A stretch of 64,000 nt of DNA, from contig NZ_CP129016.1 of NCBI RefSeq assembly GCF_020524085.2, forward strand, positions 986,001 through 1,050,000. Reading direction: 5' to 3'. The notes under the pieces were generated by a model. The model saw only the letters and a list, made by a program, of their open reading frames with translations. It searched no databases and was not told the origin of the DNA. The DNA is from Halobacillus litoralis (lineage in GTDB: Bacteria > Bacillota > Bacilli > Bacillales > Halobacillaceae). Below, in pieces: positions 17,707 to 36,061 of this stretch; within the stretch, counting starts at the first letter, position 1; every line of letters starts with the position of its first letter. A program made the position numbers and the translations under genes.

Positions 17707-17737
17707 AAAACTCCCACATTAACGGGAGTTTTTTTGT
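17703..17737 (+). terminator. Bidirectional terminator
   Basis: AAAAAACTCCC / GGGAGTTTTTTT hairpin with a short ACATTAAC loop, between the convergent lipoprotein and cryptochrome genes. Confidence 0.85.
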
Positions 17738-19179
17738 GCTTGTTCAAATACTTGTTTCCTTATTCTCATGGATTCATGCAAATCCACAACGGGTAGCGGG
17801 TAGTCTTCTCCCAGCCTAACCCCGTACTGCTCTTGCTCGAGCATCCCCATCTCTCTAGGCTGGTGGATCCACGGGGCGGGAAGGTCCCTTAATTCAGGCA
17901 GCCAGTAGCGCAAATAAGACCCATCTGGATCATAATCGAGAGCCTGCTTTTCTACATTGAACGCTCGAAAGGGTACAGCATCGTTACCTACGCCTGCGAT
18001 ATAAAGCCAGTTTCCGTAATTGCTGGCAACATCAAAGTCCACCAGTTGTGATTCAAACCAGGCGGCGCCAATGCGCCAATCCAGTCCAAGGTTTTTTGTG
18101 AAAAAGCTTGCCACATTCTGCCTGGCACGGTTGGACATAAATCCTGTTTGCTTCAATTCTCTCATGGCGGCGTCGACGAGAGGATAGCCTGTCATCCCAT
18201 CCATCCAGCAGTGCAGAAGTTCTTGGTCGTCATCCCAAGGGATCCGGTCCCCTTTGATCCCTGCCGGGTAAAAAATTCGATCGCCATATTTACGATGCAC
18301 CAGATGGAAATAATCGCGCCATAACAATTCAAAATAAAGCATGTATGTGGACTCATTTTTTCCGTGTTTCCTTTCATAGGTGCGAATCTGGTCAAGGACG
18401 ACCTTAGGGGACAGGCACCCGTTCGCAAGGTAGGGAGAGAATTTAGAGGAGTCATCTTCCTTCAGCATCCCGTTCCTCGTCTCCTTGTACACCTTCAGCC
18501 GGTCTGCTTTGAAAATATAATGAAGCAGACGGTCCTTAGCTTTAGACGAACCCCCTGGATAACGCGGCGGCCGATCCAACTCCTCCAAACCAAGCTCCTG
18601 CAAAGTAGGGATGTCCCCTTCAGGAACATTCATCGGCAAGTGTGAGCCTCTGATTGATGATGGTATGGATATTTCTGTGAGACCTGGTAAACCATTTTTT
18701 CCCAACACCTTGCGGAACTGCGAAAAGGTGTCTGGAAGTTCGCTGATGTTGAATGGGAGGTCTTCTGGTGGATACAGGTTATGGCCGCGGTCAATGGTGA
18801 AGGTGGTGTGCGGAAGTCGTTCACGGACCTTTCGCTCGATGGAGCGTTCTTCACTGCCGATTTCTTCATGGAGGAAGATCTCTTGTATAGTAAAGCTCTC
18901 CGATATCGAAGTAAATACTTCTTCAGGTGAGCCATGTCTTACGAGAAGGGGTACACCTAATTGCTTTAGGTTCTGTCGCAAATCTGCGACACTTTCCCGA
19001 ATGAATTGAGTACGATGTTTGCCCGTCTTCGGAAATCCGTAGGAGAGGTTTTGATATTGTCCTGGATCAAATACGTAAACACCGAGGACTGGAAGCCCAT
19101 GGGATGAAGCGTGTAACAGCGGGCGGTGGTCGTGCACGCGTAAGTCATTCCGGAACCAGACGATAACACAAGAATCCAT
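17719..19179 (-). CDS. Cryptochrome DASH / photolyase family protein
   Basis: Flavoprotein of 486 residues that binds FAD and, in this family, repairs cyclobutane dimers in single-stranded or loop DNA using blue light. The N-terminal photolyase domain starts VIVWFRNDLRVHDHRPL. DASH-type features include FPKTGKHRTQFIRESVADLR, the FAD-binding region with GYPLVDAAMRELKQTGFMSNRARQNVASF, and NYGNWLYIAGVGNDAVPFRAFN. Length and motifs fit Cry-DASH better than class I CPD photolyase. It is monocistronic and convergent with the lipoprotein gene. With the rhodopsin 14 kb away it points to a sunlit habitat. Confidence 0.9.
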   Translation of the reverse strand: MDSCVIVWFRNDLRVHDHRPLLHASSHGLPVLGVYVFDPGQYQNLSYGFPKTGKHRTQFIRESVADLRQNLKQLGVPLLVRHGSPEEVFTSISESFTIQEIFLHEEIGSEERSIERKVRERLPHTTFTIDRGHNLYPPEDLPFNISELPDTFSQFRKVLGKNGLPGLTEISIPSSIRGSHLPMNVPEGDIPTLQELGLEELDRPPRYPGGSSKAKDRLLHYIFKADRLKVYKETRNGMLKEDDSSKFSPYLANGCLSPKVVLDQIRTYERKHGKNESTYMLYFELLWRDYFHLVHRKYGDRIFYPAGIKGDRIPWDDDQELLHCWMDGMTGYPLVDAAMRELKQTGFMSNRARQNVASFFTKNLGLDWRIGAAWFESQLVDFDVASNYGNWLYIAGVGNDAVPFRAFNVEKQALDYDPDGSYLRYWLPELRDLPAPWIHQPREMGMLEQEQYGVRLGEDYPLPVVDLHESMRIRKQVFEQAQKNSR

Positions 19180-25751: not shown

Positions 25752-25774
25752 TAGAAACTTTTAACCGTTCCTGC

Positions 25775-25950
25775 GTAAGATAGCCCTCCATATAGTTTCC
25801 TATATGACAGTCCTGTACTTGTTCAGCAGCAGAACCAGCATCAGGGATATGAGATCCCTTTCGCTTCGGCAATTTCCCCTTTCCACTTTCATCTCAGGAG
25901 CTCATTCTCCTCCGACAAGTGTACTTATGTCATTGCACCTCTATCCTTAC
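25775..25950 (-). ncRNA. Lysine riboswitch (L box)
   Basis: Read on the minus strand, the leader carries the conserved L-box blocks in order: GATAGAGGTGCAATGACA, AGTACACTTGTCGGAGGAG, GAAAGTGGAAAGGGGAAA, TTGCCGAAGCGAAAGGG, CAGGACTGTCATATAGGAAA and GGAGGGCTATCTTACG. These match the B. subtilis lysC leader motifs (GAGGUGCG, GCCGAAGC, GGCUGUCA, GGAGGGCUAUC). It is followed by a terminator and dapA, so lysine binding should end transcription early. Confidence 0.93.
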
Positions 25951-26075
25951 TTCAAAATCATTTGAAATAAGAAAATATTTAGTTAGTTAAAGATTATCAA
26001 AAAAGTATCAAACTTACAAGTGGAAAGACAAGGGAACAAACGATTCGACAAAATCTCTGAGATTCTTATCTTAAG

Positions 26076-28840: not shown

Positions 28841-29455
28841 TTAGCGGGATTTTTTGTACCAGCCTTTTTCTTTAAATCTAGAAATGGCTTCGATGCGGTT
28901 GCTGACCTCTAATTTTTCTAAAATGACAGAAATATAGTTACGAACGGTCCCTGGAGTGATGAACAGTTCTTGGGAAATGTCTTTGGTGTTTTTTCCGTCA
29001 GCCATCAGTTGGATGACCTCGCGCTCACGTTCTGTTAAGGGGTTTTGCTGTGTGAATGCCAGGTCGACGAGTTCTGGGTCAAAGATACGCTGCCCGTTGG
29101 TGATTTTCCGAATGGCGGTGGCGAGTTCTTCACTCGGGCTGTCTTTCAACAAATAACCACTGACACCCGCACGCCGGGCGCGGTCGAAATATCCGGGCCG
29201 GGCGAAGGTTGTCAAAATGATCACTTTGCAAGGCTCTTCATATAATTCTTCAGCGGCATCCAGTCCATCCTTCACAGGCATCTCAATATCCATGATGCAA
29301 ACATCGGGTTTTAATTTTTTTACAAGTTCACAAGCTTCTTCACCATTTTGAGCCTGGCCCACAACTTCCATGCCGTCCTCTAAATCGAGAAGAGCACCCA
29401 GTGCGCCTAGCAGCATGCGCTGATCTTCGGCAATGACAATCCGAATCATGCTCAT
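28841..29455 (-). CDS. desR: DesR-type response regulator
   Basis: NarL/FixJ response regulator of 204 residues. The receiver domain (1-~120) has the phospho-acceptor Asp in DVCIMDIEMPVKDG and the conserved Lys in LLKDSPSEEL. The LuxR HTH at the C-terminus begins NPLTEREREVIQLMADGKNT. It overlaps desK by 4 bp and sits behind a desaturase gene, the order of the B. subtilis membrane-fluidity system, where phosphorylated DesR activates des in the cold. Confidence 0.93.
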   Translation of the reverse strand: MSMIRIVIAEDQRMLLGALGALLDLEDGMEVVGQAQNGEEACELVKKLKPDVCIMDIEMPVKDGLDAAEELYEEPCKVIILTTFARPGYFDRARRAGVSGYLLKDSPSEELATAIRKITNGQRIFDPELVDLAFTQQNPLTEREREVIQLMADGKNTKDISQELFITPGTVRNYISVILEKLEVSNRIEAISRFKEKGWYKKSR

Positions 29456-30582
29456 TCCTCCTTTTCTTTGTTTTTAATGACGTTCGGAACGTGGAATCGT
29501 AGTGTCGTTCCATTTTTTGATTCGATTTCAAGCTTTCCGTTCACAAATTCGAGGCGCTCACGCATGCCTTGTAATCCATTTCCGCGAAAAGGATCCAATG
29601 AGGTGGGGAGGCCTTTCCCATCATCTTCAACACCGATGAGAATTTCAGTCGGGAATTGTTCGATCGTCACACAGCAGGTGGTTGCTTCACTGTGTTTCAC
29701 AATATTCGTTGCCGCTTCTTTTAAGCACATGCTGAGCACATTTTCAACAAGCAGGGGAGTATTGGTGACGTGCGGGTCTCCTTCGAATTGAAAGTTCATT
29801 TCTGCCGCTTCGATAATCTGCTGGACGCGGACAATTTCATCTTCAAGCTTCGTCCCTTTCATATTCGATACCATCTCCCTGACTTCCTTCAAAGCCGTCC
29901 GGGCTGTGTTACGGATATCCTCCACTTCTTTACTGGCCTTTTCCGGTTGAACCGTCATTAACTTGCGGGCGAGATCACTTTTCAAACCGATCATTGAAAG
30001 CTTTTGTCCAAGCGTATCATGGAGGTCACGCGCAATCCTTTCACGCTCTTCAATGACCATCAGCTGTGAAATTCGTTCATTCGCATCTTCCAATTCCCCT
30101 TCGAGTTTTTGTTGTTGGTTCCGGTAGCGGACAGTAAATGGAAGGAGAATGACCCCGATCACGGTAACGATGATGAAAGGGAGGTTCGGAAAAAGAGAAT
30201 CAATTTGATAAATGAATGTCGTCGTAATTGCAATTAACGTCGTCGTCAAATGGACGATATATAGAGCTAAAAAGCCGCCAAGGTGTTTGATGTTACCAAT
30301 AAAATAAGCGATGAAAAGAGCGAAATAAATGTATCCGAACAGAGCCGTCATGACGATACTGATGACCATCTCCACACTGACCCATAAATAGACGAATCGG
30401 CTGTTGGATATGAACGACAACCGGTACGCGAGGAAGAAGATCAGCGTCATTAGAATGCCGAACAGCATTTCGTATATGGATGAAGAACGGAAAATGAAGA
30501 AAAAGGGCAACAAACAAAAAATGATCCAGACGTAAATGCTGAGTCCTGTATTTTTCGGAATAATTTGATACCAGTTCTGCAT
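29452..30582 (-). CDS. desK: DesK-type membrane sensor histidine kinase
   Basis: Thermosensor kinase of 376 residues from the ATG at 30582 (AAGGAGGTGGACCCGC upstream; the longer frame to 30657 has no site). The N-terminal half has about five hydrophobic helices. The HisKA_3 dimerisation domain follows with the phospho-His in ERERIARDLHDTLGQKLSM, then an HATPase domain with VEDDGKGLP and GNGLQGMRERLE. In B. subtilis DesK senses membrane thickness and switches from phosphatase to kinase on cooling. Confidence 0.93.
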   Translation of the reverse strand: MQNWYQIIPKNTGLSIYVWIIFCLLPFFFIFRSSSIYEMLFGILMTLIFFLAYRLSFISNSRFVYLWVSVEMVISIVMTALFGYIYFALFIAYFIGNIKHLGGFLALYIVHLTTTLIAITTTFIYQIDSLFPNLPFIIVTVIGVILLPFTVRYRNQQQKLEGELEDANERISQLMVIEERERIARDLHDTLGQKLSMIGLKSDLARKLMTVQPEKASKEVEDIRNTARTALKEVREMVSNMKGTKLEDEIVRVQQIIEAAEMNFQFEGDPHVTNTPLLVENVLSMCLKEAATNIVKHSEATTCCVTIEQFPTEILIGVEDDGKGLPTSLDPFRGNGLQGMRERLEFVNGKLEIESKNGTTLRFHVPNVIKNKEKEE

Positions 30583-30609
30583 GCGGGTCCACCTCCTTTT
30601 TCTTAGCAT

Positions 30610-30641
30610 AAAGGAAAAGCCCATTCGAGGGAATGGACTTT
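30610..30641 (-). terminator. Weak terminator between des and desK
   Basis: Minus-strand hairpin AAAGTCCATTC / GAATGGGCTTT followed by TCCTTT. It may give lower read-through expression of desKR from the des promoter. Confidence 0.6.
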
Positions 30642-30649
30642 CAACTTCT

Positions 30650-31699
30650 TTATTCATCCTGGAAGCTTGGCTGCCTTTGATCGATCATGGCTACGCGCTT
30701 CTTTTTCAGGAGTGGTTTCACTTCCTTGAAGGATATGAATGTTTTATTTTCTGTATCATAGAGGCGGAATCGGATTGATTCAAGGCTCGTGGCCAGTGTA
30801 ATTGTCGTCGCGTGTTTCAAAGGCGGTGTCTTTTCGTGCGCTTCTTCCAACGCATAGTTCGGAACCCTAGGGGCTAGATGGTGAACATGGTGGAAGCCAA
30901 TGTTGCCGGATACCCACTGAAGCATTTTAGGAAGCTTGTAATACGAGCTGCCATCGACAGCTGCTTTTACAAAATCCCATTCTGACTCGTCTTCAAAGTA
31001 AGAATCTTCGAATTGGTGTTGGACATAAAACAACCAGATGCCTAGGACCCCTGAAACGTACAGGACGGGGATTTGTATGATTAAGAATGCTTCCCAGCCG
31101 ATCGCCCAAATAATCAAGCTGTAGATGGCGAGAACAGCAATATTTGTCACATACGTATTGGTGCGCTCTTTCTTTTTGGCGCCTTTCCGATTAAAACGGT
31201 TGGAGACAAGGAACAAGTAAAGCGGTCCTAAGCCAAACATGACAATTGGGTTACGGTAAAGGCGGTAGGCGAGTCTTTCTTTCCATGACGCTTCTATATA
31301 CTCGTCCACGGTCATGACCCAAATGTCGCCAGTGCCGCGTTTATCTAAGTTTCCGCTTGTTGCATGGTGAATCGAATGGCTTCGTTTCCACTTATCGAAA
31401 GGAAACAACGTTAGAATGCCTGTGATCGTCCCTATGATGCGGTTGGCCTTTTGGCTTTTCAAGAACGACTGGTGTGTACAATCGTGGAAAATGATGAAAA
31501 GACGGATGACGAATCCACCAGCAATCATAGCGACAGGAACAGCAAGCCATACAGAGACGGACAGGCTTGCATAGGCCAATACCCATAATAAAACAAATGG
31601 AATAATTGTATTGATCAACTGGCGAATGCCCGCTTTTGTATCAGGTTTCGCAAAGGCTGAAACGCTTTTCTTCAGCTCTCGTTGTTTATCCTTGTTCAT
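30650..31699 (-). CDS. des: Membrane fatty acid (delta5-type) desaturase
   Basis: Acyl-lipid desaturase of 349 residues that introduces a double bond into membrane phospholipid chains. Three histidine boxes bind the di-iron centre: HDCTHQSF, HSIHHATSGN and HHVHHL. Four or so membrane helices surround them. The ATG at 31699 is preferred (GAAGGAG 8 nt upstream) over one nine codons earlier. Located directly upstream of desK-desR, as in B. subtilis, so it should be cold-induced through DesR. Confidence 0.95.
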   Translation of the reverse strand: MNKDKQRELKKSVSAFAKPDTKAGIRQLINTIIPFVLLWVLAYASLSVSVWLAVPVAMIAGGFVIRLFIIFHDCTHQSFLKSQKANRIIGTITGILTLFPFDKWKRSHSIHHATSGNLDKRGTGDIWVMTVDEYIEASWKERLAYRLYRNPIVMFGLGPLYLFLVSNRFNRKGAKKKERTNTYVTNIAVLAIYSLIIWAIGWEAFLIIQIPVLYVSGVLGIWLFYVQHQFEDSYFEDESEWDFVKAAVDGSSYYKLPKMLQWVSGNIGFHHVHHLAPRVPNYALEEAHEKTPPLKHATTITLATSLESIRFRLYDTENKTFISFKEVKPLLKKKRVAMIDQRQPSFQDE

Positions 31700-31784
31700 A
31701 ATAACGACTCCTTCATATTTCTTCATGTTATATATGATAGGAAAAACCCCTCCATTTTATAAGACACAAACGTCAGGACATATA

Positions 31785-31912: not shown

Positions 31913-31952
31913 GGAAGTGTAAATCGATACTCTATTATTGGAGGGTTACCCT

Positions 31953-32387
31953 ATGACCAAACGAATTCTCGTTGCGTACGATGGGAGTGACTTAAGTAGA
32001 GAAGCGGTATGGGAAGCAAGGAATCAGGCGTGTGAAACTTCTAATAGAGAAATTCATATTGTATCTGTCGTTAAACCCACAGGTCCAGCAACAAATGCTG
32101 CGGTCTCCCATAGTATAGGGGACGAAATGGCAGGGAAGTTGCGTTCAGAAATGGATGGACTGAAAGAAGAATTGGCTTCACCTGATGTGGGTGTCATTAC
32201 AGAAGTCATCGTTAGTGATGTACAAGAAAACCCTGGTATCGGTATTTGTAAATATGCGGAGGAGCAAGCGGTGGACTTGATCATCGTCGGGAACCGCGGC
32301 CTTGGAAAAGTGAAAAAAATGTTATTGGGAAGTGTCAGTAATAACGTCGTCCAACATGCCACCTGCCCCGTATTAGTTATGAAATAA
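31953..32387 (+). CDS. Universal stress protein (UspA family)
   Basis: Single-domain UspA fold of 144 residues starting MTKRILVAYDGSDLSREAV. The ATP-binding loop is near the end: VGNRGLGKVKKMLLGSVSNNV, followed by HATCPVLVMK. The start ATG at 31953 follows TTGGAGGGTTACCCT. Members act in stress survival, often as dimers, without a defined single reaction. It converges on the rhodopsin gene, separated by a terminator. Confidence 0.92.
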   Translation: MTKRILVAYDGSDLSREAVWEARNQACETSNREIHIVSVVKPTGPATNAAVSHSIGDEMAGKLRSEMDGLKEELASPDVGVITEVIVSDVQENPGIGICKYAEEQAVDLIIVGNRGLGKVKKMLLGSVSNNVVQHATCPVLVMK

Positions 32388-32398
32388 AGGATAAAGAA

Positions 32399-32434
32399 AG
32401 CTTGAAGGACTCCTTCAAGCTTTCTTTTTTTTAT
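32399..32434 (+). terminator. Rho-independent terminator
   Basis: AAAGCTTGAAGGA / TCCTTCAAGCTTTC hairpin followed by TTTTTTTT, after the universal stress protein gene. Confidence 0.88.
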
Positions 32435-32470: not shown

Positions 32471-32512
32471 CCATATTTTGGGTGACCAGGTCATACATAT
32501 ATTTCCATTTAA
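32471..32512 (-). repeat. Dispersed ~30-nt motif, copy 3
   Basis: Minus strand: AAATATATGTATGACCTGGT then CACCCAAAATATGGG. It lies between the usp terminator and the rhodopsin stop, in the same orientation as the rhodopsin gene and as copy 4 on its other side. Confidence 0.6.
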
Positions 32513-32525
32513 AAGGGTTGATGAA

Positions 32526-33224
32526 TCAATCATCAACGCCTGAAAGCTGCAACCGCCGAAGTCCTCCTACATCGAGGAGGCTAAATCCAACCTTGGATAG
32601 GATGGGGAGGATGATGAATGCTGTGATCTCTGTCGCTTGCTGTGTCCACCCGACTCCAGAAGGGCCAATAATCCAGGCTGTCGGGTAACAGACCCAAAAG
32701 ATAGTCAGGTAAGCGGCGGTTCGCTGGTAGTGTTTTTTCAGTTCCGTCCCACCTTTGGCAGCAATCTTCCTTAACGGATACCAAACAATATAAAGGATGA
32801 TGACTAGAGCAACTACACCGAGTACATACCAGATGTATTTGATGGTCTCGGAGGAGAAGTCGGCAATCAAACCAGTCAGAATCATAAATACGTCAGCTGC
32901 TACTAAAGCAGCGATTAAGGCTTTGTCTTTTTTCTTCTCATAAAACATGGCGGTCAAAGCGAGTGCGAGCAATAGGAGGGGCGTTGTTACCACCCAGTCT
33001 AAGTAACGGGCAAAGTACACAGTTTTGTCAGGCTGTTCGAGCAATCCTTGTCCTAAGGCAATGGATAAGTAAGCGGCTCCCGACCATGAAGGAATAATAA
33101 TCGCAATCACATACTCATACTTCGGAACACCCCGCGGATTCCGACTTAAATATAGAAACGTCAAAGCCCCAGCCAACATGACGAACGTATAAATCCAATG
33201 CAGCGAAACAATATATTCACTCAT
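32526..33224 (-). CDS. Microbial rhodopsin, Anabaena sensory rhodopsin-like
   Basis: Seven-helix retinal protein of 232 residues in the plasma membrane. The Schiff-base lysine is Lys211 in LPILSKVGFSLLDVGGLR. Helix C reads FARYLDWVVTTPLLLLALAL, giving Arg73, counterion Asp76, Thr80 and Ala87, where bacteriorhodopsin has Asp85, Thr89 and donor Asp96. Pro207 replaces Asp212, as in Anabaena sensory rhodopsin, whose SRNPRGVP-YEY, IPSWSG, GLIAD and WIIGPSG-GW segments are also shared. Asp111 occupies the place of bacteriorhodopsin Asp115. Lack of a cytoplasmic carboxylate argues for sensing or photoswitching rather than efficient pumping. No transducer or retinal-synthesis gene is adjacent; monocistronic and convergent with usp. 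Confidence 0.95.
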   Translation of the reverse strand: MSEYIVSLHWIYTFVMLAGALTFLYLSRNPRGVPKYEYVIAIIIPSWSGAAYLSIALGQGLLEQPDKTVYFARYLDWVVTTPLLLLALALTAMFYEKKKDKALIAALVAADVFMILTGLIADFSSETIKYIWYVLGVVALVIILYIVWYPLRKIAAKGGTELKKHYQRTAAYLTIFWVCYPTAWIIGPSGVGWTQQATEITAFIILPILSKVGFSLLDVGGLRRLQLSGVDD

Positions 33225-33290
33225 CGTGTCACCTCAATCTTCTATCTCATTACCTCTCATTCTAGTCAAAAATACGAGGGGCTAGACAGT

Positions 33291-33330
33291 TACATATTCT
33301 GGTGTACCAGGTCTTACATAATTTCCCATA
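33291..33330 (-). repeat. Dispersed ~30-nt motif, copy 4
   Basis: Minus strand: TATGGGAAATTATGTAAGAC, then CTGGTACACCAGAATATG. It sits ~70 bp upstream of the rhodopsin start and could overlap its promoter. Same orientation as copy 3. Confidence 0.6.
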
Positions 33331-33555: not shown

Positions 33556-34482
33556 GTGGTGATCTTGGAAGCCATCAGTAAGAACTTTTTCTTATACCTT
33601 TCCAACAATAAGTTGTTAGATCGCTTCGCTAAGCGCTTTGGCAGTAAATTTGGGGCTGACAAGATAGTAGGGGGAGAAACGTTCTCCCAGGCAATTCCAT
33701 TAATACAGCAATTGAACCATGAGGGTCTGGTCGTTACGGTTGACCATTTAGGAGAGTTTGTAGACTGTGAGGAAGAATCAAGAGACCGCGCAGGTGAATG
33801 CATCCGTTGTATTCAACAGATTGCGAGTAACCAGCTGCAGTCGGAAGTATCTCTGAAACTGACATCGCTTGGACTGGACATCAGTCGCGAGCTGGTCATG
33901 GAGAATATGGAACTTATTTTGAAAGAAGCCCAGAAACACGACATCACGGTGACCATTGATATGGAAGACTCGTCACGGTGCGGGGCTACTTTAGATATTT
34001 ATCAGGAGTTGAAAAAGGACTACCCGAATCTGGGTACGGTCGTTCAGTCTTATCTTTATCGAACCGATGAGGATCTTGATCGACTGAATGAGTGCCAACC
34101 TTACTTGCGCCTTGTGAAAGGGGCTTATAAGGAATCGGGAAAAGTGGCTTTTCCTGAAAAGCATCTCGTCGACAATAATTTGAAGCATCTGATCAAGAAA
34201 AATTTGTTGAACGGCAACTATACAGCCATTGCAAGTCACGACGATGCGATTGTCGATTATACGAAAAAGCTTGTGAAAGAGCACAACATTCCGAAAGACC
34301 AGTTTGAATTCCAGATGCTTTACGGAATGAGGAATCAAATGCAGAAAGATCTTCTTGAAGAAGGGTACAAAGTAAGAGTGTATCTTCCTTATGGAGAAGA
34401 CTGGTATGGGTACTTCATGAGAAGACTCGCCGAAAGACCAGCGAACATCGCCTTTGCATTAAAAGGTGTTTTCAGTAAATAA
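33556..34482 (+). CDS. putB: Proline dehydrogenase
   Basis: FAD enzyme of ~308 residues oxidising proline to pyrroline-5-carboxylate, delivering electrons to the membrane. The beta-barrel core shows [49 protein letters not shown] and the C-terminal [12 protein letters not shown] motif with substrate-binding arginines. Start codons near 33556 are GTG, GTG and TTG (33556, 33559, 33565); AAAGGG at 33549 leaves the exact start open. First gene of the proline catabolic operon with the P5C dehydrogenase 32 bp on. Confidence 0.94.
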
Positions 34483-34514: not shown

Positions 34515-36061
34515 ATGGTCCAGCCTTATAAACACGAACCATTCACAGACTTTACAATTGAAGAAAACAAGAAAGCTTTTGAGGAAGCGCTGAAGCAAGT
34601 GAAAGAAGAATTAGGGCAGCATCATGATCTTCTCATCGATGGCGACCGTATCCGCACAGACAATACGATTACCTCCACAAACCCTGCGGACACGAAGCAG
34701 GTCGTAGGTACCGTATCCAAAGCGAATGAAGACTTAGCGGAAAAAGCCGTCCAGTCAGCAGCGACTGCTTTTGAAGACTGGAGAAAATGGGATCCGCGTG
34801 CTCGCGCTGAGTTATTGTTCCGTGCGGCTCACATCATCCGTCGTCGTAAGCATGAATTTTCCGCTTATCTTGTGTATGAAGTAGGAAAGCCTTGGAAAGA
34901 AGCTGATGCAGATACGGCAGAAGCGATCGACTTCCTTGAGTATTACGGCCGTCAGATGATCGAATTGAAGGAAGGCAAGCCAGTTGAAAGCCGCCTGGTG
35001 AGCAAAACCGTTACATCTATACATCCACTGGCGTTGCGGTTGTTATCCCGCCTTGGAACCTTGCATTTGCCATCATGGCAGGTACAACGGTTGCTCCACT
35101 TGTTACAGGAAGCACGGTCGTTATGAAGCCGGCAAGTAACAGCCCTGTCATTGCTGCGAAATTCGTAGAAGTACTTGAAGAAGCAGGTCTACCGAAAGGT
35201 GTCTTGAACTTCGTGCCAGGAAGCGGTGGCGAAGTCGGTGACTATCTTGTCGATCACCCTAAAACGGCCCTGATTTCCTTTACAGGTTCCCGTGATGTTG
35301 GAACACGTATCATTAAACGTGCGGCAGAAATTCAAGAAGGTCAGAACCACCTTAAGCAAGTGATTGCTGAAATGGGCGGGAAAGACACTGTCGTCGTCGA
35401 TAAGGAAGCGAATATCGAAACAGCGGTCGATGCCATTATCGTCTCCGCCTTCGGATTCTCCGGTCAAAAATGTTCTTCCGGTTCACGCGCCGTCGTTCAC
35501 GAAGATGTGTATGATGAAGTGTTGGAAAAAGTAAAAGAACGCGCTGAACAGCTGACCGTCGGAAATGCATCTGAAGAGAACGTCTACATGGGACCCGTTG
35601 TCGACCAGGGCGCTTATGATAAGATCATGAGCTACATGGAGATCGGTAAAGAAGAAGGCCGTCTAGTCACAGGTGGTAAAGGGGACGACTCGAAAGGGTA
35701 CTTTATCGAGCCAACGGTATTTGCGGATCTCGCTCCGGATTCCCGTATGCAACAGGAGGAAATCTTTGGACCGGTCGTCTGCTTCACAAAAGCGAAAAAC
35801 TTCGATGAAGCCATCGACATTGCCAACAATACAGAATACGGTCTCACAGGTGCGGTCATCTCTGACAACCGTGACCACTTGGAAAAAGCGAAATACGACT
35901 TCCACGTAGGGAACTTGTATTTCAACCGTAACTGTACAGGAGCCATCGTCGGTTATCAGCCATTCGGCGGTTTCAAGATGAGTGGAACAGACTCCAAAGC
36001 CGGCGGACCTGACTACCTTGCTCTACACATGCAAGCGAAGACGATCTCTGAAATGTTTTAA
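34515..36061 (+). pseudogene. putC: L-glutamate gamma-semialdehyde (P5C) dehydrogenase, one-base frameshift
   Basis: NAD-dependent enzyme finishing proline breakdown to glutamate, ~515 residues when joined. The first frame covers residues 1-~160 ([13 protein letters not shown] to GKPVESRL). At 34996-34998 CTGGTGAGC would need one more G; with it the sense continues as [20 protein letters not shown] and on to QAKTISEMF. The catalytic Glu ([12 protein letters not shown]) and Cys ([11 protein letters not shown]) are present downstream. A missing G in a GGG run is a typical consensus error, so the gene may be intact in the organism. RocA is an alternative name. Confidence 0.92.

What the first reader, a model, noticed from the sequence alone, without database searches (positions are those of the whole stretch)
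32526..33224. Anabaena-sensory-rhodopsin-like photoreceptor in a Gram-positive chromosome, without an adjacent transducer
Seen: Lys211, Asp76, Thr80, Ala87 and Pro207 at the positions of bacteriorhodopsin 216, 85, 89, 96 and 212. Established: Anabaena sensory rhodopsin has Pro at 212 and a non-carboxylic residue at 96, and signals through a soluble partner (ASRT) encoded next to it; a similar sensory rhodopsin was reported in the Bacillus coahuilensis genome. Inference: this is a sensory or photochromic protein with an unusual D-T-A triad and an Asp111 (bacteriorhodopsin Asp115 position) not shared with the Anabaena protein as I recall it. The neighbours are a universal stress protein, cold-sensing desKR and a proline regulator, any of which could be an output. 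Nothing in the sequence proves it.
Basis: partly seen in the sequence, partly recalled or inferred. Interest (0 to 1): 0.85.

Follow-up and report, generated by a model that had tools for sequence, protein, structure and literature searches.

The report
Light-driven inward proton pump in Halobacillus
The gene encodes a light-sensitive membrane protein that very probably pumps protons into the cell, like its characterised cousin from Bacillus coahuilensis, and the open puzzle is where this bacterium gets the vitamin-A-like pigment the protein needs.

Summary
The organism is a Halobacillus (four named Halobacillus genomes carry 95-96% identical genes). Tree, fold search, Asp at position 111, short tail and absence of the transducer ASRT place it with BcXeR. 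The D-T-A triad is the commonest in the rows compared. No neighbour is shared beyond Halobacillus. Best reading: an inward H+ pump of the BcXeR kind, patchy in the genus (9 of 22 genomes, plus one remnant) and under strong purifying selection (dN/dS 0.03-0.06). The interesting part is retinal supply. None of 27 xenorhodopsin-bearing Bacillota genomes searched has a true Blh, a carotenoid cleavage oxygenase or a full-length lycopene cyclase match, whereas Blh or the oxygenase was found in all 9 Gram-negative and cyanobacterial comparison genomes. That gap in Firmicutes is already mentioned in print, without data. New member of a known kind; moderate interest.

The parts
32526..33224 (-). Xenorhodopsin gene, 232 aa; retinal Lys211, counterion Asp76, Pro207, cytoplasmic Glu37/Thr91/Ser215/Asp218
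   Evidence: closest solved structure BcXeR 7zmy E 3.4e-87; Foldseek top 10 all BcXeR, TM 0.92-0.94
33229..33235 (-). Shine-Dalgarno-like GAGGTGA, 4 nt before the ATG
   Evidence: Read from the sequence; the same in 3 of the 4 closest orthologues and one base different in L023, not seen in L026 and L031
33225..33555 (-). Intergenic region upstream of the rhodopsin, divergent from the proline dehydrogenase gene; promoter presumed here, none identified
   Evidence: Sigma-70-like sites no more than in shuffles; best sigma-B-like site reached by 105 of 200 shuffles
32393..32427 (.). 17-bp perfect hairpin between the convergent usp and rhodopsin genes, probable terminator shared by both
   Evidence: Inverted repeat I1; terminator-like on both strands
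31938..32387 (+). Universal stress protein gene, convergent neighbour; not part of the rhodopsin unit
   Evidence: PF00582 E 4.5e-30; near the rhodopsin only in Halobacillus loci
28841..31726 (-). DesR-like response regulator, DesK-like kinase, fatty acid desaturase: read as a separate cold-sensing unit
   Evidence: PF00072/PF00196, PF23540/PF07730, PF00487; the same block stands in G002, which has only a rhodopsin remnant (L020); but see L026 and L031, where the rhodopsin directly precedes it
33556..34482 (+). Proline dehydrogenase, divergent neighbour
   Evidence: PF01619 E 1.4e-38

Best explanation
It is a xenorhodopsin of the BcXeR type: a light-driven inward proton pump encoded by a gene of its own. 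Inferred working by homology with BcXeR: light turns all-trans retinal on Lys211 to 13-cis; the Schiff-base proton leaves toward the cytoplasm along a water chain past Ser215 to the Glu37/Thr91/Asp218 pocket; the Schiff base is reprotonated from the outside. Net effect: light-driven H+ entry. Shown here: sequence, fold and clade membership, conservation, no detectable ASRT, gene layout (convergent to usp, divergent from proline dehydrogenase). Inferred: direction of pumping and photocycle. Unknown: physiological use and where the retinal comes from; no known route was found in the genome, so scavenged retinal or an unknown route is required.
For: 62% identity to BcXeR against 50% to ASR; phmmer 295 bits against 231; Foldseek ranks 1-10 all BcXeR; 24-row clade with BcXeR 100/98; residues named for BcXeR proton release (Glu34, Thr88, Asp214, Ser211; PMC12002130 and PMC13093656 passages) are conserved as Glu37, Thr91, Asp218, Ser215; short tail without the Arg-rich extension (tail after residue 225: median 7 in its clade, 39.5 in the ASR clade), the lack of which PMC5118547 used to set PoXeR apart from ASR (passage); no ASRT match; no neighbour shared beyond Halobacillus; dN/dS 0.030-0.058 against 4 orthologues.
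Against: The pump residues Glu37, Thr91 and Ser215 are present in 32 of 32 ASR-clade rows and Asp218 in 30 of 32, so they do not by themselves separate pump from sensor; ASR, with these residues, is described as a sensor and pumps inward after the D217E change (PMC3198991 and PMC13093656). Ser215 itself is kept in only 15 of 23 rows of the BcXeR clade. No known retinal gene was found in the genome, so a working holoprotein in the native cell is not shown. BcXeR has Ser where this protein has Thr80. NsXeR was not in the tree. No activity was measured.
Confidence: 0.82

Rival explanations
1. Sensory or photochromic rhodopsin working like Anabaena sensory rhodopsin, through an unidentified partner or through neighbours such as Usp or DesKR.
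For: Same family and same core residues as ASR; the PoXeR authors themselves suggested signalling as a use of inward pumping (PMC5118547 passage). In 7 of the 9 Halobacillus genomes with an intact gene it lies by the desaturase-DesKR block, and in 2 of them (L026, L031) directly before the desaturase on the same strand, so a shared transcript is possible there.
Against: No ASRT match; outside the ASR clade; Asp111 and short tail; the DesKR block, Usp and proline genes were not near the rhodopsin in any locus outside Halobacillus, nor in 2 of the 9 Halobacillus genomes; the block persists in G002, which keeps only a rhodopsin remnant.
Confidence: 0.13
2. A decaying or never-functional apoprotein, since no retinal can be made.
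For: No Blh, carotenoid cleavage oxygenase or lycopene cyclase match in the genome; no match in 12 and only a remnant in 1 of 22 Halobacillus genomes.
Against: Intact frame and strong purifying selection, dN/dS 0.03-0.06; Aurantimicrobium minutum makes functional rhodopsin without known retinal genes (PMC7734400 abstract and section 13).
Confidence: 0.04
3. Outward proton pump.
For: Asp76 at the BR-85 acceptor position.
Against: Pro207 for Asp212 and Ala87 for the Asp96 donor; clade membership. Class-level relatives with Lys at the donor position (D-T-K; 6 of 20 put in the tree) form a distant separate group.
Confidence: 0.01

Closest known systems
BcXeR, Bacillus coahuilensis xenorhodopsin (PDB 7zmy and others)
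   Same: 62% identity, fold TM 0.92-0.94, same clade, same Glu/Thr/Ser/Asp cytoplasmic set, Ala at the BR-96 position, Pro at BR-212, Asp at BR-115
   Different: Thr80 instead of Ser (D-T-A against D-S-A) and the other 38% of positions
Anabaena sensory rhodopsin (ASR)
   Same: About 50% identity, Pro at BR-212, same counterion and cytoplasmic Asp
   Different: Asp111 against Gln, Ala87 against Ser, no long Arg-rich tail, no ASRT match in the genome, different clade
PoXeR, Parvularcula oceani xenorhodopsin (L049)
   Same: 56% identity, Asp111, Pro207, Asp218; PoXeR is an inward pump (PMC5118547 passages). That L049 is the PoXeR gene itself is inferred from the species
   Different: D-T-L triad; its genome has Blh and a lycopene cyclase match, this one has neither

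Membership tests
Xenorhodopsin, inward-pump type (BcXeR, PoXeR) | Seven-helix Bac_rhodopsin domain with the retinal lysine | tested here: met
   PF01036 E 2.7e-53; seven helices of 22 or more residues plus a short one in the model; Lys211
Xenorhodopsin, inward-pump type (BcXeR, PoXeR) | Pro at the BR-212 position (named as diagnostic in PMC3198991) | tested here: met
   Pro207; Pro in all 80 rows counted, Asp in the 6 outgroup rows, L093 not covering it
Xenorhodopsin, inward-pump type (BcXeR, PoXeR) | No carboxylate at the BR-96 donor position | tested here: met
   Ala87
Xenorhodopsin, inward-pump type (BcXeR, PoXeR) | Groups with characterised inward pumps and not with ASR | tested here: met
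   With BcXeR 100/98; ASR clade separate 100/98; the wider grouping with the PoXeR species is weaker, 90/89
Xenorhodopsin, inward-pump type (BcXeR, PoXeR) | Measured light-driven inward H+ transport | not testable with these tools
   Needs expression with retinal and a pH assay
Anabaena sensory rhodopsin system | ASRT transducer gene beside it or in the genome | tested here: not met
   PF07100 0 matches in the own genome, one control rang; 1 of 27 xenorhodopsin-bearing Bacillota genomes, on another contig. The feature is a weak test: 0 of 3 cyanobacteria searched had it either
Anabaena sensory rhodopsin system | Membership of the ASR clade | tested here: not met
Anabaena sensory rhodopsin system | Long Arg-rich C-terminus (as named in PMC5118547) | tested here: not met
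   Seven residues, QLSGVDD, after residue 225; ASR clade median 39.5 residues with a median of 6 Arg, range 13-46 residues
Outward proton pump (bacteriorhodopsin, proteorhodopsin) | Proton donor at BR-96 (Asp, Glu or Lys) and Asp at BR-212 | tested here: not met
   Ala87 and Pro207

The most novel reading that the evidence does not exclude
The Bacillota xenorhodopsins run on a chromophore made by an unknown route. In the 27 genomes searched their hosts show no known retinal-forming enzyme and no full-length lycopene cyclase match, Halobacillus is known for acyclic C30 carotenoids, and yet the opsin is kept under strong purifying selection. An undiscovered enzyme, perhaps acting on C30 carotenoids and perhaps giving an unusual retinal analogue, would supply it.
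Probability: 0.2. Interest if true: 0.75.

Novelty: new member of a known kind. Interest (0 to 1): 0.42.

Why it matters
The biological use of inward proton pumps is called a mystery in PMC12002130 (passage), and the authors of PoXeR could not address it because a culture of native cells was not available (PMC5118547 passage). Several Halobacillus, Rossellomorea and Metabacillus genomes found here come from named strains, so the question could be asked in native Gram-positive hosts. The same strains would test how opsin carriers without known retinal genes obtain chromophore.

Tried and rejected
Sigma-B control of the rhodopsin (because Usp is next door): in the window the best site was reached by 105 of 200 mononucleotide shuffles; of the 29 upstream regions scanned, 5 (L022, L027, L029, L054, L094) had a site reached by 24 or fewer of 200 shuffles, without a common position (L027 and L029, two strains of one species, share theirs). 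Rejected.

Rhodopsin-specific operator: similar GACCTGGT-containing sequences flank the gene on both sides in the window and its four closest orthologues, which looked like an operator pair or a cassette boundary. Sampling 484 kb of the own genome showed a dispersed palindromic repeat (36 profile hits, 32 below E 0.01; a palindromic place can count on both strands), so the flanks are members of a genome-wide family. Rejected as rhodopsin-specific.

Blh in Alkalibacterium: a below-cut-off PF15461 match belongs to a YidC-type 60KD_IMP protein. Rejected. The first own-genome Blh search had no ringing control; the wider search supplied it (6 of 6 Proteobacteria and Hymenobacter genomes).

Lycopene cyclase PF05834 rang at low scores in many Bacillota genomes, over parts of the profile only, read as FAD-domain cross-talk; the best Bacillota match was E 2.6e-9 over positions 1-149 of 380 (G062), above the family cut-off. 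For the own genome 39 of 45 candidates were scored. PF18916 gave only one below-cut-off match, in a comparison cyanobacterium, and rang in 3 control genomes (1 over the cut-off), so it is a weak negative.

Neighbour check: the ORF filter had dropped the window's usp gene for a longer shadow frame, so these two calls say nothing about Usp; one search repeated the test for six window genes on unfiltered frames of 44 loci.

Rows dropped: L093 (truncated before helix G) was left out of the group counts; identical proteins were entered once in the tree (L139 equals L073). One search ended with a script error after the neighbour clustering was printed; its tail analysis (which parsed 18 of 36 Bacillota rows) was redone by alignment column. 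Whether the two Bacillota groups join is weakly supported (89/60) and left open. For the multi-genome searches I gave the genomes of 26 of the 35 Bacillota loci and 9 of the 45 other loci, plus the own genome; itself kept the best 80 of 195.

Full report
What is there. The ORF at 32526-33224 on the - strand encodes 232 aa with ATG start and a GAGGTGA ribosome-binding sequence. It is a Bac_rhodopsin protein (PF01036, E 2.7e-53) and the only one found in its 3.95 Mb genome. The genome is a Halobacillus: the nearest loci in named genomes are H. litoralis SL-4, H. litoralis 22505_10_Sand, Halobacillus sp. Nhm2S1 and H. faecis, 95-96% identical.

Which rhodopsin. The best solved relative is the xenorhodopsin BcXeR (7zmy; E 3.4e-87, 295 bits), ahead of ASR (231 bits). 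Identity is 62% to BcXeR and 50% to ASR. An AlphaFold2 model from 28 window and locus sequences has mean pLDDT 91.2; its ten best Foldseek matches in the PDB are all BcXeR (TM 0.92-0.94), and ASR follows at 0.90. In a maximum-likelihood tree of 89 sequences the window protein sits in a 24-row set with BcXeR and Bacillota proteins (100/98), while the ASR set of 34 rows, all cyanobacterial, is separate (100/98). The wider group that unites the Bacillota with PoXeR's species is 90/89, and the union of the two Bacillota groups only 89/60. The tool warned of long branches, BcXeR's among them, so deep order is not claimed.

What marks it as pump-like. BcXeR is described as an inward proton pump with proton release through Glu34, Thr88 and Asp214 and a water chain to Ser211 (PMC12002130 and PMC13093656, passages only; PDB titles). 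These are Glu37, Thr91, Asp218 and Ser215 here. They are not discriminating, since ASR has them too. What separates the groups is residue 111 (BR-115): Asp in 36 of 36 Bacillota rows, 4 of 4 proteobacterial, 6 of 6 Hymenobacter and 2 of 2 other rows, Gln in 31 of 32 ASR-clade rows (L093, truncated, left out); and the tail after residue 225, median 7 residues in this clade against 39.5 with a median of 6 Arg in the ASR clade. NsXeR carries Glu111 with an assigned carboxyl signal; that it is the same position is inferred from its numbering (Asp76 in both). The D-T-A triad is the commonest one, 52 of 80 rows, among them 17 of 23 in this clade, though 1 of 6 Hymenobacter and 0 of 4 proteobacterial rows.

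Transducer and neighbours. ASRT (PF07100) gave no match in the own genome. Ugalde and colleagues reported in 2011 that, among the xenorhodopsin carriers known then, they identified ASRT homologues only in Anabaena (PMC3198991, findings section read in full). In the window the gene is convergent to usp with a hairpin between at 32393-32427 and divergent from proline dehydrogenase. Among 18 representative Bacillota loci no neighbour family within four ORFs recurs in more than two (that call's ORF filter missed usp). A repeat on unfiltered frames of 44 loci (8 genomes are in it twice) found the window's Usp, desaturase, DesK, proline dehydrogenase and PucR genes near the rhodopsin only in Halobacillus: in 7 of the 9 genomes with an intact gene, counting the window, and in G002 with its remnant, but not in the other two Halobacillus (L032, L035) nor in any other genus of the set. 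In two of the seven (L026, L031) the order differs: the rhodopsin lies directly before the desaturase on the same strand, so co-transcription with DesKR is possible there.

Distribution and constraint. In the family sample, 9 of 22 Halobacillus genomes have an intact gene, one more (G002) keeps a 37-residue remnant at the same place, and 0 of 22 genomes of five other genera have a match. Against the four closest orthologues dN/dS is 0.030-0.058, so the protein is being kept. Its GC (0.467) is slightly above the window's (0.446) and its third-position GC (0.504) lies within the quartiles of 39 window ORFs, so there is no sign of recent import.

The retinal gap. Blh (PF15461) was found in 6 of 6 Proteobacteria and Hymenobacter xenorhodopsin genomes, 0 of 3 cyanobacteria, and truly in 0 of 27 Bacillota; the one weak Bacillota match is a YidC protein. 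Carotenoid cleavage oxygenase (PF03055) was found in 3 of 3 cyanobacteria, 0 of 6 and 0 of 27. Full-length lycopene cyclase PF05834 was found in 6 of 6 and only as partial matches in Bacillota, the best E 2.6e-9 over 149 of 380 positions, none in the own genome; PF18916 in none of the 27, a weak negative. The 27 are the own genome and those of 26 of the 35 Bacillota loci. The own genome has one phytoene-synthase-family gene with three crtI-family genes and a glycosyltransferase within 10 kb, consistent with the acyclic C30 carotenoids reported from H. halophilus (PMC9598406 passages); that this cluster makes C30 pigments is inference. Nakajima and colleagues already noted that Firmicutes among others carry rhodopsins without blh or diox1 (data not shown) and showed that A. 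minutum makes retinal by an unknown route (PMC7734400, abstract and section 13). So the gap is not new; the count and the contrast with sister clades sharpen it.

Literature check. Searches for rhodopsin with Halobacillus (all 15 papers listed; passages of one seen) and for two of xenorhodopsin/inward/Halobacillus (20 of 68 listed) showed no title or abstract start describing a Halobacillus xenorhodopsin. Only open-licence PMC papers are held, so this is no proof of absence. The original BcXeR paper was not read; it is known here through citing papers and PDB titles. PMC12227055 was seen as passages only.

Verdict. Observation confirmed; sensory reading not supported as the first choice. It is a new member of the BcXeR branch of xenorhodopsins, most likely a light-driven inward proton pump (0.82), with physiological role and chromophore source open.

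Noticed in passing
window 32485-32498 and 33306-33319; also window 12956; L149, L150, L151, L153, L156-L158: Dispersed short palindromic repeat with core GACCTGGT, often as ACCAGGTC, a palindromic ATCCA...TGGAT middle, then GACCTGGT. 32 profile hits below E 0.01 in 484 kb of the own genome, 11 in 180 kb of other Halobacillus, 0 in 250 kb of 15 other Bacillota loci and 0 in 187 kb of 13 mostly cyanobacterial loci (palindromes can count on both strands, and the profile was built from the own genome). No Rfam match at these places in window and L153. May be genus-restricted.
   Followed up: partly
L026 8001-9884 and L031 8001-9884 (+): In these two Halobacillus genomes the xenorhodopsin lies directly before the fatty acid desaturase-DesKR genes on the same strand, unlike in the window where usp lies between: a possible co-transcript of a light pump with the cold-sensing desaturase unit.
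   Followed up: partly
window 34515-36061 (+): The aldehyde dehydrogenase (P5C dehydrogenase-like) gene after proline dehydrogenase is split into two frames here, while the same gene is one 515-aa frame in L013-L016 and L020: a frameshift or a sequencing error.
   Followed up: partly
window 17719-19179 (-): DNA photolyase/cryptochrome-family gene (PF00875, PF03441), another light-related protein in the window.
   Followed up: partly
window 25773-25951 (-): Lysine riboswitch RF00168, 112.7 bits.
   Followed up: no
L020 9759-9869 (+): 37-residue xenorhodopsin remnant (89% identical to residues 167-203) in Halobacillus genome G002 at the same site: a lost copy.
   Followed up: partly
   Followed up: no
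L119-L138: Class-level relatives of one unnamed family (f32), 20 genomes, carry another rhodopsin; the 6 rows checked have D-T-K, like the Exiguobacterium outward pump as I recall it.
   Followed up: partly
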